Assembly (NCBI GenBank): GCA_963969345.1
Contig: OZ017770.1
Coordinates: 753,246-817,245 of the forward strand
DNA: 64,000 nt
Reading direction: 5' to 3'
DNA from: Turbatrix aceti
Lineage: Eukaryota; Nematoda; Chromadorea; Rhabditida; Panagrolaimidae
Shown: positions 1 through 14,391 of the stretch, one piece after another
Layout: the number at the start of each line of letters is the position of its first letter
Position numbering within the stretch: the stretch's first letter is position 1
Position numbers and translations under genes: made by a program
Notes under the pieces: generated by a model
The model's input: the letters and a program-made list of their open reading frames with translations, nothing else
What the model was told of the DNA's origin: nothing
Databases searched by the model: none

Positions 1-447
1 CTTGCTCGCTCTGCTCACGCTCTTTGAGCAATTCAATTTTTCGTGCTCGCTCTGCTCATGCTCATTGAGCACTCCAATTTTTCGCGCTCGCTCCGCTCGC
101 GCTCGTGAGCTGAGCAGGAGCGAGCAGTGAGCAGGAGCAATTTGGTGAGCATCGAACAACTCTGCTGAAAAGGAAAGAAAGTATAACCGTTGAAAGTGTC
201 CCCGCGCCTCACAAACTTTATGTGTTTTTCGGCCAAATAAGCCATTAAATTGAGTTAGACTCCCAGTTTAAACGTAGTTGTTGTAGTATTGGCTCATCAG
301 TTGTATTAGTAGCTTCCAACTTACTCCAAGCGAATAAAACCTGCCAGTAAAACGTTGCCATATTTCTGTCTTTCAATATTTTTTGTATGTTTTAAATTTC
401 ACACAACCTCATTCATCTACCTAATCACTAATCATCGTGCTGTTGCC
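1..447. repeat. Low-complexity GAGCGAGC-rich tract and upstream region of the TWK gene
   Basis: Positions 1-155 are built from imperfect copies of short units such as GCTCGCTCTGCTCA and TTGAGCA, first on one strand and then as the reverse complement (GAGCGAGCAG) near 110-140, so the tract is both tandem and partly self-complementary. The rest, to 447, is AT-rich and I see no gene in it. It lies directly upstream of the potassium channel gene and may hold its promoter, but I see no specific promoter element. Confidence 0.6.
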
Positions 448-6508: not shown

Positions 6509-7125
6509 AAAAACAAACAAAAACAAAGCTCACATCAAACGCATACACAGACACAAAATTCCGGTCAACGTTTTTGATACATTGACGTCTATCGATGAAC
6601 TCTTTTTTCAACCATAATCTGTACGACGTTCTTTTTTACCACAAAAAATACAGAACCCCTGCATAAAATTAGGTAGCGCAAGCATGTAACATGTTTACGG
6701 CTTTTGTCTCATGTTGATACATCCTATTTTTTGTTCGTCACCTATACTTATTGTTCTTTTATTGATACATACGAGGGGCTTTTTGTGCTTATCAGGCCGT
6801 ATCGTTAACTCCTCATCGGGTGATATTTCTTAATAAACATAATATGCATAAATCGTTTGTCAACATCAAGGTCTAAAATGAGACCGAGATTTGGTTTACT
6901 GTACAGTTCATCATTTAATGCAGGGCTTCCTCACTCTTCAGGGGTTTTTTGCTTCGCTGCAGATGACAAAGAACGAGAATGCCCTGAAATGTTGATGGAC
7001 TATTTTGAGAAATGATAATGAATAATGATAAAAAAATATTCTGAATAACGTGGGCACTATTTTTATCCGATTTTTGTTGAAAAAGCATCCAAAAACAGGA
7101 AAATCGAAATTGTGTCACACAAATT
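6509..7125. other. Intergenic region between the plexin-domain gene and the inverted-repeat element
   Basis: AT-rich sequence with an AATAAA at 6832-6837 that could serve the upstream gene. The 120-codon frame at 6915-7277 on the minus strand runs across the element boundary and is not credible as a gene. I see nothing else. Confidence 0.6.
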
Positions 7126-7168
7126 TGTTCCAAGACCACAAAAAGTCTGCAGTTTTTTACAGTAATTA

Positions 7169-7343
7169 GCGTCGCTGATTTTTCTTCTCTCTGCACATGT
7201 TTGTTGCCCGTCTTTTGGTGCGCGTGCCAAGCAAAGTTATCAGTAGACAAACGAACTGATATGATTGTGTGCAACAAGCATAGTCCCTCTGACCTCTAAA
7301 GGCATCAGTTGCGTTTGATCATTGTTTTGTTTTTTACAAAAAT
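7169..7343 (+). repeat. 175 bp subterminal direct repeat, copy 1 (left arm)
   Basis: Begins GCGTCGCTG and ends in a T-rich then ACAAAAAT stretch. It is matched at 7779-7953 in the same orientation with about three differences over 175 bp. Both are mirrored in the right arm (about 13399-13573 and 12789-12963), giving four copies per element. It starts 43 bp inside the tip. Confidence 0.85.
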
Positions 7344-7778
7344 TATTTCAAAACACAGTTTTTTTTGTTAGAATTGTCGGTTATTTTTGCTTTTCTCGTT
7401 GTATCGATCGCAGCATGTTTCGGGAATTCAATTTTTTTATCAGCATATTTGGGCATTTTATTGTTGATTTGGCAGCGAGAAAAAATTCGTTATCAGACTA
7501 TCAGACGAACTCAGATATGACCTTGCCGCAAACAACATCTCTCTGTTCTTATTGGTCATCAGATGCACCTGTTGTTTTGTGATGTTGTTTGCAACTTTTT
7601 TCTTTTTATCAGTGTCTCCATGTTTTTATTGAATTTTGACGGATCAGAATAATTTTTTGTTGCACACATGCATTGATCTCCGACGGATACCATCGATATG
7701 CCTATTTATTGTCGATTTTTGGCATGTCAGGGAATTAATTTTTCTGTTATCAGCCATTTGGAGCATTTTATCAGTTGG

Positions 7779-7953
7779 GCGTCGCTGTTTTTTCTTCTCT
7801 CTGCACATGTTTGTTGCCCGTCTTTTGGTGCGCGTGCCAAGCAAAGTTATCAGTAGACAAACGAACTGATATGATTGTGTGCAACAAGCATAGTCACTCT
7901 GACCTCTAAGGGCATCAGTTGCGTTTGATCATTGTTTTGTTTTTTACAAAAAT
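7779..7953 (+). repeat. 175 bp subterminal direct repeat, copy 2 (left arm)
   Basis: Same unit as 7169-7343, about 610 bp further in. The DNA between and beyond the copies also shows weaker similarity, with repeated phrases such as CGATATGCC, TTTATTGT and TTTTTGGCATG near 7695-7730 and 8100-8145, which suggests older rounds of tandem duplication. Confidence 0.85.
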
Positions 7954-8399
7954 GATTTTAGGCCACTCGCGTGCACGCCGATTTGCCGCAATTTGAACCA
8001 GTTTCGTGCACGTTTACCCGTTTTTCCGTATGTTTTTTTTATTTGCAGCGAATTGGAATTATTTTTTGTTACCTATGAGCAGTGGTCCACGGTCGAGACT
8101 GTCGATATGCCCGTTTATTGTTAATTGTGCCGAGTTTTTGGCATGCATGATCCATGTAAAAGCCAAGAAAGGTTATTTTCCTGCGTTTTTTTTAATCGAA
8201 CCCAATTTCAAACCCTGTTTGACATGTCTAATTATTTTTATCATTTTCAGCTTAAGCAATTGTTTATAATGACTTCACTGATCCTTTTTTTGCTTCCGTT
8301 TTTTGTAATCGTGTTTTTTGTTTCTGCGTGCACGTTGTTTTTATATATTTTTTCATTTTTCATACGTTTTTATGAACTATGAAAATATGAAAACAACTT

Positions 8400-9004
8400 T
8401 GACGACTCGACTCCGCCGACGTCTGGTCTGCTTCTTGACCCAGTTTGCGGTTTCCTCGGCGTCGCACACTGCGAACTTGGGTATCCAACACGGAATGCAT
8501 GGCTGAGTATTCCGCGTCTACGCATGCGGACCCGCCTGGATCTTGGAGGATGGCCGCAGAGGCGAGTGCTGCGGACGTGAGGCCCGCGGTCCTTTCGTGG
8601 GGCCCGGGAGTTACGGGAACTTGGTTTTGGCGGTAGTTTTGGTTTTATAGGGCAGTCTGGGATTTTATGATGGTATGGGAGAATTTTACGAGACACGGGG
8701 ATGAGCTGGATACCGCCAAGACGGGTTGTCGTTAACCATATGCCAAGAGGCCCCCTTTGGGGGGTCGACGCCAGTGCCGAACCCGGAATTCACGTTGAAG
8801 GGTGACTTCGATATGCCTGATGGGGAAGAAGACAAAAGCCCAGCAGGACAGGTGAGTTGGCTTGATTTGAGCAACCGGTGTTTAACTTTTTTTTTCACTT
8901 GCAGAGTTCTCCGACTCTTGTCCGCTGCACATGCCACGGCCACTCAGGAGTCAGGTAATGTCGGGATCCTGTCTGTGCGGTTTGATCGCCGTCGCTGCCG
9001 ATAG
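8400..9004 (+). other. GC-rich, splice-signal-bearing stretch in the arm; possible fossil or cryptic exons
   Basis: In the left arm, a frame running to about 8850 reads PEFTLKGDFDMPDGEEDKS and ends at CAG/GTGAGT. A 50-odd bp AT/T-rich stretch follows, ending CACTTGCAG at about 8904, and the next open stretch begins with SSPTLVRCTCHGHSG. A good donor, a T-rich tract and a good acceptor at normal nematode spacing inside a GC-rich island look like an intron. I recognise no domain and cannot close a full reading frame. The same signals occur inverted in the right arm (about 11738-12340). Confidence 0.3.
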
Positions 9005-9174
9005 GATCCCAAAATTTGATTGCTATTGTTGCATGTATAAACTATTATGGGGGGGGGGGGCAAAATTAATTTTACGGTCTAATTATTGTGAATTAGAATT
9101 CGTGGATAGTTTTTCGACTTCGAATTTGCCGTAGTACTTGGATTTATTAGTGTTGCCGTTAGTTTGGTGCTGGC

Positions 9175-10000
9175 TCGTGTGATTGTGCCTGAAGGGATAG
9201 TTTTGTGTGTGGCGCTCTTTCGGACCTGGCGGTGTGGCAAACGACATTATTAGCGAGTATGCTGTACGCTAGATACCTTGGACGCGCGGAATGGATTCGG
9301 GGAATGCTTACGTAAGGACAATGGAGCTTAATTGTCAGGTGACGGCCAGTGCGTGTATTCAGGAGCAATGCTAGGGGTTTGGCGCTGCCTTATATAAGCA
9401 TTTTGTGCGATTTTTTGTTGTATGGATGACAGAAGAGTCTAGACTTTTGAAGGTACGTAGACGTAGCGCTAAAGGTGTGATGCTTACATTAGATCCCTGT
9501 CTGAGTCTATCGGCGGGGGTGGGTGCAAGGTGTCAGAGTCAAAGGTCGGTGTGCGTGACGCTGTAGGATACTCTGTAGGGTAGGGTGGCGCTCTTTCGGA
9601 CCTGGCGGTGTGGCAAGCGACATTATTAGCGAGTATGCCGTATGCTGGTTACCTCGGACGCGCGGATTGCTTAGGTGTGAGTGAATAGGGTTTTTGTCAG
9701 TGGTGTGACGCTGTAGGGTACTCCTCCTGCACTCATTAGCCGCATTTTCGTTATGGACATTGGAGCTTCATAGTTATGTCGCGGCCAGTGCGTGTATTTA
9801 GGAGCATTGCTAGGGATGGCGCTGCCTAGTATTGGCAGCATTGCTGGGATATGGCGCTGCCTAGTATTGGAAGCACTTAGTGTGATTTTTTTGTTATATA
9901 GATGACGGAAGAGAACGTAGTGCTGTTTGACGTAGCGCTAAAGGTATCAGAGTCAAAGGTCGGTGTGAGTGACGCTGTAGGGTACTCCTCCTGCAATCAT
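9175..10000 (+). repeat. Array of diverged repeat modules in the inner arm
   Basis: At least four phrases occur twice or more: one beginning GGCGCTCTTTCGGACC at about 9211 and 9588; one with GCCAGTGCGTGTATT at about 9340 and 9785; one with GACGTAGCGCTAAAGGT at about 9462 and 9928; and one with GTGACGCTGTAGG at about 9555, 9703 and 9969. GGCGCTGCCTAGTATTGG occurs in close tandem at about 9820 and 9855. This indicates a roughly 400 bp segment duplicated and then diverged. The mirror image lies in the right arm at about 10740-11565. Confidence 0.75.
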
Positions 10001-10088
10001 TGGCCGCGTTTTCGTTAAGCAACTGGTTCCGTGCTAAAGGTGTAATGCTTAGATCCTTCTCTGGTACTTCTTTGGTGCTGAGTCTCTT

Positions 10089-10650
10089 TAAGGGACGTTG
10101 GATTTTGACCGGTGATAGACGGTTCGATCTGTTACTCCTTAAAACTCCGGTGCTAAATGTAAATGTTCTGTATCTTAGACGACGCTGGTTACGCTGTTGG
10201 GTACTCTTCCTCAGCCACCGGATAAACAGCCCCTAGTATTCACCCTCAGTACCACGATATCTACAAAACATGCAACGAGGTCTTTGTACATGGCCGCACT
10301 ATCGACAAATGATATATTTTGCTCCCCACCATCACCACTACGGACAATAGCTTACTCTGATATAATCTAATTCCATGTCTCTATAATCTAAGGATTTTTG
10401 TTCTATTTACTTCCAAATAAAGCCATCAGATAATTGATCAAGTACATAGTGTGCGTGGAACAGTGTCGTCCACAGACGTAACCAGGTATAAGGGGAGACA
10501 GATGGCTAGTGCTTTCTACACGGAGACAGACTACAACACGTCAATCTACACACCCGTCCGATCAAAGGTCTAGCACAGTAAAAAGGTGTCTTACATCCAA
10601 GACCTAGGATTCTGATACGCTGCCCCCCCACCCCTCCAACTAATCTCGCC
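10089..10650. other. Single-copy spacer of the inverted-repeat element
   Basis: 562 bp between the inner ends of the arms, where left and right sequences stop matching (10088/10651). It is not repeated elsewhere in the window and has no credible reading frame; the two small frames that enter it start in the arms. Confidence 0.7.
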
Positions 10651-13616
10651 AAGAGACTCAGCACCAAAGAAGCACCAGAGAAGGATCTAAGCATTACACC
10701 TTTAGCACGGAACCAGTTGCTTAACGAAAACGCGGCCAATGACTGCAGGAGGAGTACCCTACAGCGTCACTCACACCGACCTTTGACTCTGATACCTTTA
10801 GCGCTACGTCAAACAGCACTACGTTCTCTTCCGTCATCTATATAACAAAAAAATCACACTAAGTGCTTCCAATACTAGGCAGCGCCATATCCCTAGCAAT
10901 GCTTCCAATACTAGGCAGCGCCATATCCCTAGCAATGCTCCTAAATACACGCACTGGCCGCGACATAACTATGAAGCTCCAATGTCCATAACGAAAATGC
11001 GGCTAATGAGTGCAGGAGGAGTACCCTACAGCGTCACACCACTGACAAAAACCCTATTCACTCACACCTAAGCAATCCGCGCGTCCGAGGTAACCAGCAT
11101 ACGGCATACTCGCTAATAATGTCGCTTGCCACACCGCCAGGTCCGAAAGAGCGCCACCCTACCCTACAGAGTATCCTACAGCGTCACGCATACCGACCTT
11201 TGACTCTGACACCTTGCACCCACCCCCGCCGATAGACTCAGACAGGGATCTAATGTAAGCATCACACCTTTAGCGCTACGTCTACGTACCTTCAAAAGTC
11301 TAGACTCTTCTGTCATCCATACAACAAAAAATCGCACAAAATGCTTATATAAGGCAGCGCCAAACCCCTAGCATTGCTCCTGAATACACGCACTGGCCGT
11401 CACCTGACAATTAAGCTCCATTGTCCTTACGTAAGCATTCCCCGAATCCATTCCGCGCGTCCAAGGTATCTAGCGTACAGCATACTCGCTAATAATGTCG
11501 TTTGCCACACCGCCAGGTCCGAAAGAGCGCCACACACAAAACTATCCCTTCAGGCACAATCACACGAGCCAGCACCAAACTAACGGCAACACTAATAAAT
11601 CCAAGTACTACGGCAAATTCGAAGTCGAAAAACTATCCACGAATTCTAATTCACAATAATTAGACCGTAAAATTAATTTTGCCCCCCCCCCCCATAATAG
11701 TTTATACATGCAACAATAGCAATCAAATTTTGGGATCCTATCGGCAGCGACGGCGATCAAACCGCACAGACAGGATCCCGACATTACCTGACTCCTGAGT
11801 GGCCGTGGCATGTGCAGCGGACAAGAGTCGGAGAACTCTGCAAGTGAAAAAAAAAGTTAAACACCGGTTGCTCAAATCAAGCCAACTCACCTGTCCTGCT
11901 GGGCTTTTGTCTTCTTCCCCATCAGGCATATCGAAGTCACCCTTCAACGTGAATTCCGGGTTCGGCACTGGCGTCGACCCCCCAAAGGGGGCCTCTTGGC
12001 ATATGGTTAACGACAACCCGTCTTGGCGGTATCCAGCTCATCCCCGTGTCTCGTAAAATTCTCCCATACCATCATAAAATCCCAGACTGCCCTATAAAAC
12101 CAAAACTACCGCCAAAACCAAGTTCCCGTAACTCCCGGGCCCCACGAAAGGACCGCGGGCCTCACGTCCGCAGCACTCGCCTCTGCGGCCATCCTCCAAG
12201 ATCCAGGCGGGTCCGCATGCGTAGACGCGGAATACTCAGCCATGCATTCCGTGTTGGATACCCAAGTTCGCAGTGTGCGACGCCGAGGAAACCGCAAACT
12301 GGGTCAAGAAGCAGACCAGACGTCGGCGGAGTCGAGTCGTCAAAGTTGTTTTCATATTTTCATAGTTCATAAAAACGTATGAAAAATGAAAAAATATATA
12401 AAAACAACGTGCACGCAGAAACAAAAAACACGATTACAAAAAACGGAAGCAAAAAAAGGATCAGTGAAGTCATTATAAACAATTGCTTAAGCTGAAAATG
12501 ATAAAAATAATTAGACATGTCAAACAGGGTTTGAAATTGGGTTCGATTAAAAAAAACGCAGGAAAATAACCTTTCTTGGCTTTTACATGGATCATGCATG
12601 CCAAAAACTCGGCACAATTAACAATAAACGGGCATATCGACAGTCTCGACCGTGGACCACTGCTCATAGGTAACAAAAAATAATTCCAATTCGCTGCAAA
12701 TAAAAAAAACATACGGAAAAACGGGTAAACGTGCACGAAACTGGTTCAAATTGCGGCAAATCGGCGTGCACGCGAGTGGCCTAAAATCATTTTTGTAAAA
12801 AACAAAACAATGATCAAACGCAACTGATGCCCTTAGAGGTCAGAGTGACTATGCTTGTTGCACACAATCATATCAGTTCGTTTGTCTACTGATAACTTTG
12901 CTTGGCACGCGCACCAAAAGACGGGCAACAAACATGTGCAGAGAGAAGAAAAAACAGCGACGCCCAACTGATAAAATGCTCCAAATGGCTGATAACAGAA
13001 AAATTAATTCCCTGACATGCCAAAAATCGACAATAAATAGGCATATCGATGGTATCCGTCGGAGATCAATGCATGTGTGCAACAAAAAATTATTCTGATC
13101 CGTCAAAATTCAATAAAAACATGGAGACACTGATAAAAAGAAAAAAGTTGCAAACAACATCACAAAACAACAGGTGCATCTGATGACCAATAAGAACAGA
13201 GAGATGTTGTTTGCGGCAAGGTCATATCTGAGTTCGTCTGATAGTCTGATAACGAATTTTTTCTCGCTGCCAAATCAACAATAAAATGCCCAAATATGCT
13301 GATAAAAAAATTGAATTCCCGAAACATGCTGCGATCGATACAACGAGAAAAGCAAAAATAACCGACAATTCTAACAAAAAAAACTGTGTTTTGAAATAAT
13401 TTTTGTAAAAAACAAAACAATGATCAAACGCAACTGATGCCTTTAGAGGTCAGAGGGACTATGCTTGTTGCACACAATCATATCAGTTCGTTTGTCTACT
13501 GATAACTTTGCTTGGCACGCGCACCAAAAGACGGGCAACAAACATGTGCAGAGAGAAGAAAAATCAGCGACGCTAATTACTGTAAAAAACTGCAGACTTT
13601 TTGTGGTCTTGGAACA
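10651..13616 (-). repeat. Right arm of the inverted-repeat element
   Basis: 2966 bp, the reverse complement of the left arm. The 12-base homopolymer is matched exactly (12 C at 11682-11693). The open frames of the outer and middle arm translate identically in both copies. The differences I found (four substitutions, a 2-base and a 1-base indel) all lie in the inner part, roughly 10651-11200. Confidence 0.85.
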
Positions 13617-14391
13617 AATTCTGAAACAAGTTTCTAGTCAACCTGAATAGTAAGTTTTAGTTTTTAAAACTTAAAAATGTGTATGAAATAATTGAACGAC
13701 ATTCTTTTCAATAATTTTTTACTGCGTTTTCTCATTAATTGCAAATCATTTCAGATATTAGGTTTCTGCATTAGCCAACAGAAGATAAAAAAAAATTAAC
13801 AAGCACAAAAATGTTACTTTTTCACCAAAAAAATTTATTATGTAACAAAAAAGCGCTTTTGTTAACTTTAAGCAACAATGGTTTGCAATCCATACTTTTC
13901 ATGTAAGTATTAGGCGCTCAAGTTTAAGTGTGACAAACATAAAAGCTGATTTTTGCACTTCCTTCTCCCCTTTCTCATTGTTCAAACTTTCAACGCGTAA
14001 AACGTGCCGAAGTAAATTCAGGTGCATGATGGCACACTGCTCGAAGCGCTGAACATTGTTCTCGGTTTCCTCAAGCTAAACATGCATTTCGCGGGTGATC
14101 GGCCACAATGGGTGCGTTGTAGATCGTAGTAGGAATTTTCCTGGCAACTCTTTTCAATTAACACTGTACAGTACTTTTTTCTGTTGCATTAACGGTAACA
14201 ACACAGTTCAAAATTCGTAGATTTAATTAAAAAAAAGCATAAAAACAAACAACACAAACTCGACAAAATTTAGGGTACAAAAACAACAAAACGGGAAGCG
14301 CTAACGATAAGAGACTGTTTTCGGAGTTATAGGAAGTGTGCATACGAGAAGTACTACGACAGTAAATGGTAATAGCTTAGTTGAATAGGTA
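13617..14391. other. Intergenic region downstream of calnexin
   Basis: AT-rich sequence between the element and the calnexin stop codon. It probably includes the calnexin 3' UTR (minus strand). I see no other gene, repeat or RNA. Confidence 0.6.

What the first reader, a model, noticed from the sequence alone, without database searches (positions are those of the whole stretch)
7126..13616. 6.5 kb element made of two ~2.96 kb inverted arms and no visible transposase
Seen: exact mirror relation (x pairs with 20742-x) over at least the outer 2.4 kb, abrupt ends at 7122/13620, and a single-copy spacer. Known: foldback-type and MITE-like elements can have very long inverted repeats, but arms of ~3 kb filling over 90% of the element are unusual. 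Inference: a non-autonomous family moved by a transposase encoded elsewhere, or a self-propagating hairpin structure.
Basis: partly seen in the sequence, partly recalled or inferred. Interest (0 to 1): 0.78.

Follow-up and report, generated by a model that had tools for sequence, protein, structure and literature searches.

The report
Mirror-image DNA family on one chromosome
A 6.5 kb mirror-image stretch of worm DNA is one of five related mirror-image stretches found on the same chromosome, whose two halves seem to keep correcting each other so that they stay almost identical; one of the five also looks as if it jumped using small transposons at its ends.

Summary
The palindrome is real: window 7122-13620, arms 2.97 kb (7 differing columns in 2970), spacer 562 bp. 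The 60 Mb nematode genome holds five such palindromes (A-E), all found on contig C6, with aligned arms of 2.3-8.5 kb. All share at least part of the spacer, so the palindrome predates its dispersal; yet arms of one copy differ by 0.04-0.25% and copies by 0.4-2.6%. Best reading: arm-to-arm gene conversion. In C a young, 5'-truncated LINE sits at mirrored positions in both arms. Palindrome ends differ in every copy, and B and C mirror private local DNA, so this is not a simple transposon with fixed ends. Copy D, however, is bracketed by two foldback MITEs with GAATTC outside both; 10 of 15 solitary MITEs have 6 bp duplications, but only 1 of 4 in D's own subfamily. D may have moved as a composite. 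Function, sex linkage and transcription are untested.

The parts
7122..10088 (+). left arm of palindrome A
10651..13620 (-). right arm of palindrome A, 99.76% identical to the left arm read backwards
10089..10650 (.). spacer; DNA related to part of it also lies between the arms of B (about 190 bp), C, D and E; as RNA it folds no better than shuffled sequence
7491..10088 (+). part of the arm shared with the other four palindromes (the core, as aligned)
7122..7168 (+). outermost 47 bp of the arm, matched only within copy A in the genome search; mirrored at 13574-13620
7169..7348 (+). extra copy of a 180 bp block (second copy 7779-7958, 98%); both are mirrored in the right arm at 13394-13573 and 12784-12963
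7029..7125 (.). left flank: broken copy of a dispersed repeat whose similarity to other copies stops at the palindrome boundary
9209..9669 (+). two copies of an 85 bp block inside the arm (9209-9293, 9585-9669, 92%); mirrored in the right arm

Best explanation
This is one of five dispersed palindromes of a single family (A-E), all found on chromosome-sized contig C6 of a nematode related to Panagrolaimus and Halicephalobus. Shown: each copy is arm-spacer-arm; at least part of the spacer is shared, so the palindrome formed once and then spread; the arms of one copy are more alike than arms of different copies; several insertions and deletions private to one copy are in both of its arms. Inferred: the two arms pair, as a hairpin or between sister chromatids, and one serves as template for repair of the other (non-reciprocal gene conversion), which keeps them alike and copies each new insertion across. 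When copying runs past the end of an arm, flanking DNA is duplicated on the other side and the palindrome grows (private mirrored DNA of B and C, 47 bp in A). Spread to new sites may have used a transposition-like step at least once: D looks like an 11 kb composite moved by two foldback MITEs. The other copies probably spread or were reshaped by rearrangement within the chromosome.
For: Five copies, all found on C6; spacer DNA of A found between the arms of the other four (only about 190 bp in B). Mismatches between arms of one copy: A 4/2598, B 2/1468, C 4/2587, D 1/2686, E 7/2850; between copies 10-64 per 1375-2650 aligned bases, the smallest being C-D with 10-11/2586. Gaps of about 59 bp in A and 49 and 43 bp in C are in both arms. 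Arm differences lie near arm ends: 18 of 21 events within 300 bp of an end, 3.3 expected; in C none in about 8.15 kb of interior. A 5'-truncated LINE in C, 99.8% and 99.6% identical to the two dispersed copies compared over about 1.59 kb, has the same breakpoints in both arms. B mirrors 297 bp, and C 664 bp plus 2.2 kb, with no full match elsewhere. D: GAATTC|MITE...MITE|GAATTC with inner flank TGGTTT; exact 6 bp duplications at 10 of 15 solitary MITEs.
Against: No reads, second strain or related genome were available, so conversion is inferred from one assembly; polishing might blur arm differences. BLAST chose the arm ends, so part of the clustering of differences near ends is a selection effect. 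The contrast is weakest for C: 4 mismatches between its arms against 10-11 to D. In C, the order 'palindrome first, LINE second' rests on 4 difference events in the outer 281 bp. B has a large deletion in one arm only, so conversion is incomplete. Private changes show no GC bias (31 strong-to-weak, 16 weak-to-strong). GAATTC is its own reverse complement, so it may be mirrored DNA and not a target duplication, and in D's own MITE subfamily only 1 of 4 solitary copies scored has a 6 bp duplication (9 of 11 in the more distant one).
Confidence: 0.72

Rival explanations
1. A non-autonomous foldback/MITE-like transposon family with very long terminal inverted repeats, moved by a transposase encoded elsewhere. 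The arms are identical because each insertion is recent.
For: Dispersed copies and no recognised transposase. D on both sides and E on the right stop exactly at MITE termini, and D has a 6 bp flanking repeat.
Against: Five palindromes have five different outer ends, and aligned arms range from 2.3 to 8.5 kb. Copies differ by 0.4-2.6% while arms differ by 0.04-0.25%, although both arms were present before dispersal. No palindromic copy was found on another contig. No clean duplication around A. Only D fits well.
Confidence: 0.15
2. Recent segmental duplications: each palindrome is a young inverted duplication made by template switching or fold-back repair, and no ongoing conversion is needed.
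For: Arms are nearly identical and include local private DNA in B and C; C has a further partial inverted copy of its outer arm outside the palindrome.
Against: Related spacer and arm pairs lie at five sites that have diverged from each other by up to 2.6%, so at least the core palindrome is older than its arm identity suggests. Five independent foldings at the same centre would be needed.
Confidence: 0.1
3. The palindromes are transcribed hairpin loci: read-through of arm-spacer-arm gives long double-stranded RNA and small RNAs (in C also against a young LINE), and selection, not only conversion, keeps the arms matched.
For: Matched arms of 2.3-8.5 kb; C carries a young LINE in both arms. Window 8400-9000 has few variable columns (8 of 576), but bins at 7800 and 9200 are as low (3 of 199, 3 of 200), so this is weak.
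Against: No RNA data; the spacer folds no better than shuffles; no Rfam match in the window. In the genome search the arm of A matched mainly the other palindromes, with two short 77% stretches on C4 and no active transposon.
Confidence: 0.08
4. Assembly artefact (fold-back reads or collapsed repeats).
For: No reads could be inspected; false palindromes are a known scaffolding error (PMC7953838, passages).
Against: Five palindromes with related spacers, different arm lengths, different edges and different flanks; differences between arms are kept at the edges.
Confidence: 0.03

Closest known systems
Long inverted repeats actively maintained in Caenorhabditis (Zhao et al. 2007, PMC1803023; parts 1-3 of 4 of the text read)
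   Same: Nematode; kilobase arms (2207 bp at the F44E5.4 locus, 99.7%), short spacer, arms more alike within than between related palindromes; gene conversion proposed; one group of three pairs is on the X.
   Different: There the palindromes are pairs of paralogous genes kept at orthologous loci in three species. Here no known gene family was recognised in the shared core, five copies are spread along one contig, and arms hold mirrored transposons and have copy-specific lengths.
Mammalian X and Y palindromes (PMC8981503, PMC5997626, PMC9122934; only listings and starts of abstracts seen)
   Same: Arm identity above 99% maintained by arm-to-arm gene conversion; several palindromes on one chromosome.
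   Different: The abstracts report GC-biased conversion and, in mouse, testis-expressed gene families; here no GC bias was seen, no gene family was recognised in the core, and sex linkage of C6 is unknown.
Tm1 Mutator/Foldback family of root-knot nematodes (PMC3169594; abstract and passages seen)
   Same: Nematode inverted-repeat elements with terminal repeats of variable length, one of 1080 bp, some carrying other DNA.
   Different: Tm1 has 8-10 bp, mostly 9 bp, duplications; the MITE at the ends of copy D makes 6 bp ones where one is seen. Palindromes A, B and C are not bounded by that MITE, and E only on one side.
Foldback-type transposons such as Tc4, FB and Galileo (recalled; Galileo seen only as a listing)
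   Same: Very long inverted repeats and little unique middle.
   Different: Fixed termini define such families (recalled); the five palindromes have different ends.
Palindromes in parthenogenetic animals (PMC7953838; passages seen)
   Same: Survey of hairpin-forming inverted blocks in animals including nematodes, with conversion as the suggested benefit.
   Different: It scored collinear annotated genes and found 1-4 palindromes in eight species besides Adineta vaga and Folsomia candida, and none in 13; a family without recognised genes would probably be missed (inference).

Membership tests
Foldback/MITE-like transposon | Copies share the same outer termini | tested here: not met
   Five palindromes, five different outer ends
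Foldback/MITE-like transposon | Target-site duplication at the outer ends | tested here: inconclusive
   D: GAATTC on both sides, self-complementary. A: nothing clean, only AATT, mirrored. B, C, E: only short words at shifted positions. Solitary MITEs: 6 bp in 10 of 15, of which 1 of 4 in D's own subfamily
Foldback/MITE-like transposon | Dispersed over the genome | tested here: not met
   All five found are on C6; on C4 only two short 77% pieces without palindrome; the search gives lower bounds
Foldback/MITE-like transposon | Empty sites in other strains | not testable with these tools
   The genome has no relatives in the held set
Gene-converted palindrome | Arms more than 99% identical around a non-repeated spacer | tested here: met
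   99.7-99.96% in five of five
Gene-converted palindrome | Palindrome older than its arm identity implies | tested here: met
   Related spacer in all copies (in B only about 190 bp), copies 0.4-2.6% apart, arms 0.04-0.25%
Gene-converted palindrome | Later insertions appear in both arms | tested here: met
   LINE in C with identical breakpoints in both arms; MITE in both arms of D; gaps private to A and C. B has one deletion in one arm only. That the LINE came after the palindrome is inferred
Gene-converted palindrome | GC-biased substitution (mammalian form) | tested here: not met
   31 S->W against 16 W->S private changes in 2406 usable columns
Mammalian-type sex-chromosome palindrome | On a sex chromosome | tested here: inconclusive
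   A glypican locus is on C4 and a let-7 candidate, below the gathering score, on C6; both are X-linked in C. elegans (recalled). No male/female coverage
Mammalian-type sex-chromosome palindrome | Carries germline-expressed genes | tested here: inconclusive
   Six core frames without Pfam match over cut-off; one 162 aa core frame without relatives; a coding-like frame in the arms of C without relatives; no expression data
Composite transposon (copy D) | Two transposon copies at the ends with one duplication outside and different inner flanks | tested here: inconclusive
   GAATTC outside, TGGTTT inside, as expected; but the word is self-complementary and D's MITE subfamily shows 6 bp duplications in only 1 of 4 solitary copies

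The most novel reading that the evidence does not exclude
These palindromes are a self-extending, chromosome-bound kind of selfish DNA: arm-to-arm repair both erases differences and copies flanking DNA across, so the arms grow and pick up transposons, while foldback MITEs trapped in the arms can become the new ends and carry the whole palindrome to another place on the same chromosome.
Probability: 0.22. Interest if true: 0.72.

Novelty: new variant of a known kind. Interest (0 to 1): 0.5.

Why it matters
Long palindromes are usually unstable, and their upkeep by gene conversion is best known from mammalian sex chromosomes. Five related palindromes in a small worm genome, with natural tags (a young LINE, MITEs, private deletions) in both arms, would let conversion between arms, its direction and the growth of arms be measured in a small animal. 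If copy D moved as a composite, it would also show how a palindrome becomes mobile without a transposase of its own.

Tried and rejected
Ordinary transposon with fixed ends: rejected for the family as a whole because the ends differ. Known non-coding RNA: no Rfam match in the window, no tRNA; the spacer folds worse than 95 of 100 shuffles. Coding content of the core: six frames sent to Pfam, none over cut-off; one had two matches below cut-off, E 0.07-0.08; one frame of 162 aa had no relatives among 91 candidates. GC-biased conversion: not seen. Sex linkage of C6: two marker families, mixed and inconclusive. Organism: the window's GC (40.5%) equals that of Bursaphelenchus xylophilus (40.4%), but that assembly has six scaffolds with N90 12.14 Mb against five large contigs here, the smallest 11.37 Mb; B. 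okinawaensis has six scaffolds and 36.2% GC; calnexin is closer to Panagrolaimus and Halicephalobus (57-64%) than to Bursaphelenchus (52-53%). Species unknown. The C4 relative (two pieces at 77%, beside a gene that I recognise from memory as pescadillo-like) shows no inverted repeat in the 7.5 kb read. The left-flank repeat of A was compared with three other copies to look for an empty site; inconclusive.

Corrections made on rechecking: my notebook says 11 of 15 solitary MITEs have a 6 bp duplication; one search gives 10 of 15, made up of 1 of 4 in D's subfamily (L028-L031) and 9 of 11 in the distant one (L033-L043); L032 held only one end and was not scored. The 565 aa reverse-transcriptase frame in C runs across the 5' border of the LINE, which begins at Cx 5853.
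Full report
OBSERVATION. The window is G000:C6:753246-817245 of a 59.9 Mb, 28-contig genome. The palindrome is as described: arms 7122-10088 and 10651-13620, 99.76% identical over 2970 columns, 562 bp spacer. The 24-base telomere word (TTAGGC)4 occurs 1343 times forward and 367 times reverse, its backward control never, and the calnexin gene beside the palindrome is closest to Panagrolaimus and Halicephalobus (57-64% identity among the best five hits, two of them unnamed), so the host is a nematode of that neighbourhood; the species is unknown. The five large contigs whose lengths I saw (C1, C2, C4, C5, C6) sum to 59.6 Mb.

COPIES. A genome search with window 7000-10100 and self-comparison of 29 kb around each place gave five palindromes, all on C6: A 760367-766865, aligned arm 2.97 kb; B 1184191-1190065, 2.27 kb; C 8435688-8453947, 8.5 kb; D 9981420-9992726, 5.04 kb; E 10818165-10825590, 3.13 kb. 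If places were independent and contigs equal, five of five on one of five contigs has a probability of about 0.0016 (my arithmetic), but local spread would also give it. Apart from short matches to the repeat in A's left flank, the only other relatives are two pieces at 77% (215 and 181 bp) on C4, without a palindrome in the 7.5 kb around them. The tool says that its counts are lower bounds.

THE ARMS EVOLVE TOGETHER. DNA from the spacer of A lies between the arms of C, D and E (about 435 bp, 81-89%) and of B (about 190 bp, 95%), so arm-spacer-arm existed before the copies separated. Without exchange, the two arms of one copy should be at least as different as the copies. They are not: mismatches between arms are A 4/2598, B 2/1468, C 4/2587, D 1/2686, E 7/2850, while between copies they are 10-11 per about 2586 (C-D), 28-31 per 2545-2638 (E with C or D) and 38-64 per 2479-2648 (A, or the full right arm of B, with the others); the short left arm of B gives 13-23 per 1375-1467 (gaps not counted). 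The contrast is smallest for C. Gaps of about 59 bp in A and about 49 and 43 bp in C are in both arms; B is the exception, with a large deletion in one arm only. Differences between arms sit near arm ends: 18 of 21 events within 300 bp of an end against 3.3 expected, and none in about 8.15 kb of the interior of C; because BLAST chose the ends, part of this is selection.

TRANSPOSON TAGS. The outer arm of C holds a LINE, 5'-truncated at Cx 5853 and ending near 7447, 99.8% and 99.6% identical over about 1.59 kb to the two dispersed copies that I fetched; the genome search lists ten other places at 99-100% over 1.2 kb or more, on C1, C2, C4 and C6. Both arms have the same 5' break and 3' tail, and an A-rich 11 bp word, AATAAAAAAAT, stands at both ends as a likely target duplication (read). 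One insertion in two mirrored places means copying between the arms, or duplication after insertion. The outer 281 bp of C, outside the LINE, hold 4 difference events and the interior none, which favours copying into an older palindrome; the numbers are small.

THE ENDS. The palindrome ends differ in every copy. B mirrors 297 bp with no match elsewhere. C mirrors 664 bp outside the LINE and 2.2 kb inside it with no full match elsewhere, although fragments (97% and less) lie outside on its left, partly in inverted orientation. The outermost 47 bp of A matched only within A. So arms extend into local DNA. D is different: its arms end in a foldback MITE (about 1087 bp, 467 bp inverted repeats) found on C1, C2, C4, C5 and C6. 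Of 15 solitary copies scored, 10 have an exact 6 bp duplication: 1 of 4 in D's subfamily, 9 of 11 in a subfamily about 76% alike. At D the sequence reads GAATTC|CACGGTG...CACCGTG|GAATTC with a different inner flank, TGGTTT: the pattern of a composite moved by its two outer MITE ends. But GAATTC is self-complementary and may be mirrored DNA, and D's subfamily seldom shows the duplication, so I call this likely, not shown. The right side of E reaches the same MITE terminus, with a different flank and no similarity to D beyond it; the left side of E lacks it. A has no clean duplication, and its left flank is a dispersed repeat broken at the boundary.

CONTENT. Six frames of the core arms gave no Pfam match over cut-off (other frames were not sent), the window has no Rfam match, and a 162 aa core frame has no relatives. 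The arms of C alone hold a coding-like frame of 311 aa when spliced by hand, without relatives. Private substitutions are 31 S->W, 16 W->S and 15 neutral, with 18 other variable columns, in 2406 usable columns, so no GC-biased conversion is visible.

LITERATURE. Long inverted repeats kept alike by an active process are known in Caenorhabditis (PMC1803023, parts 1-3 of 4 read), where gene conversion is proposed and one group of such pairs is on the X. Mammalian X palindromes kept by conversion were seen in listings and abstract starts only. Tm1 of root-knot nematodes is a foldback family with mostly 9 bp duplications (abstract and passages). A survey of parthenogenetic animals found few gene-containing palindromes (passages). 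The papers listed (20 of 58; 9 of 9; 12 of 21; 10 of 18) do not, by title or abstract start, describe a dispersed palindrome family confined to one nematode chromosome; the library holds open-licence papers only, so this is weak evidence of novelty.

VERDICT. The feature is real and not an ordinary transposon. It is a new variant of a known kind, converting palindromes, with two unusual traits: dispersal along one chromosome, and ends that grow or are replaced by transposons. Conversion is inferred from sequence; spread by MITE ends is suggested for D only; function is unknown, with hairpin RNA as an open possibility.

Noticed in passing
L028-L043; D arms at C6:9981426-9982506 and mirror: Genome-wide foldback MITE family, about 1087 bp with 467 bp inverted repeats and CACGGTG ends; exact 6 bp target duplications at 10 of 15 solitary copies scored.
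   Followed up: yes
L048, L049; C6:8436352 onward: Young LINE family with ten dispersed places at 99-100% identity over 1.2 kb or more and a TTGAAA-rich tail; probably active until recently.
   Followed up: partly
L018 2867-3787 (C6:8433366-8434286): Partial further copy of the outer arm of palindrome C, inverted, about 1.4 kb outside its left end.
   Followed up: partly
L013 3247-3852 (C4:11440746-11441351): Two pieces 77% like window 7852-8375, not palindromic, downstream of a gene that looks pescadillo-like (recognised from memory).
   Followed up: partly
window 1-165 (part of C6:752866-753410): 545 bp stretch 97% identical to one in the left flank of palindrome D, outside both palindromes.
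   Followed up: no
C6:10813646-10814461 and 10833838-10834653: 816 bp direct repeat, 99.3% identical, one copy on either side of palindrome E.
   Followed up: no
Cx 8923-9997 (C6:8439422-8440496, arms of palindrome C): Coding-like frame with a plausible intron and a 125 bp internal repeat, 311 aa spliced by hand, no relatives found.
   Followed up: partly
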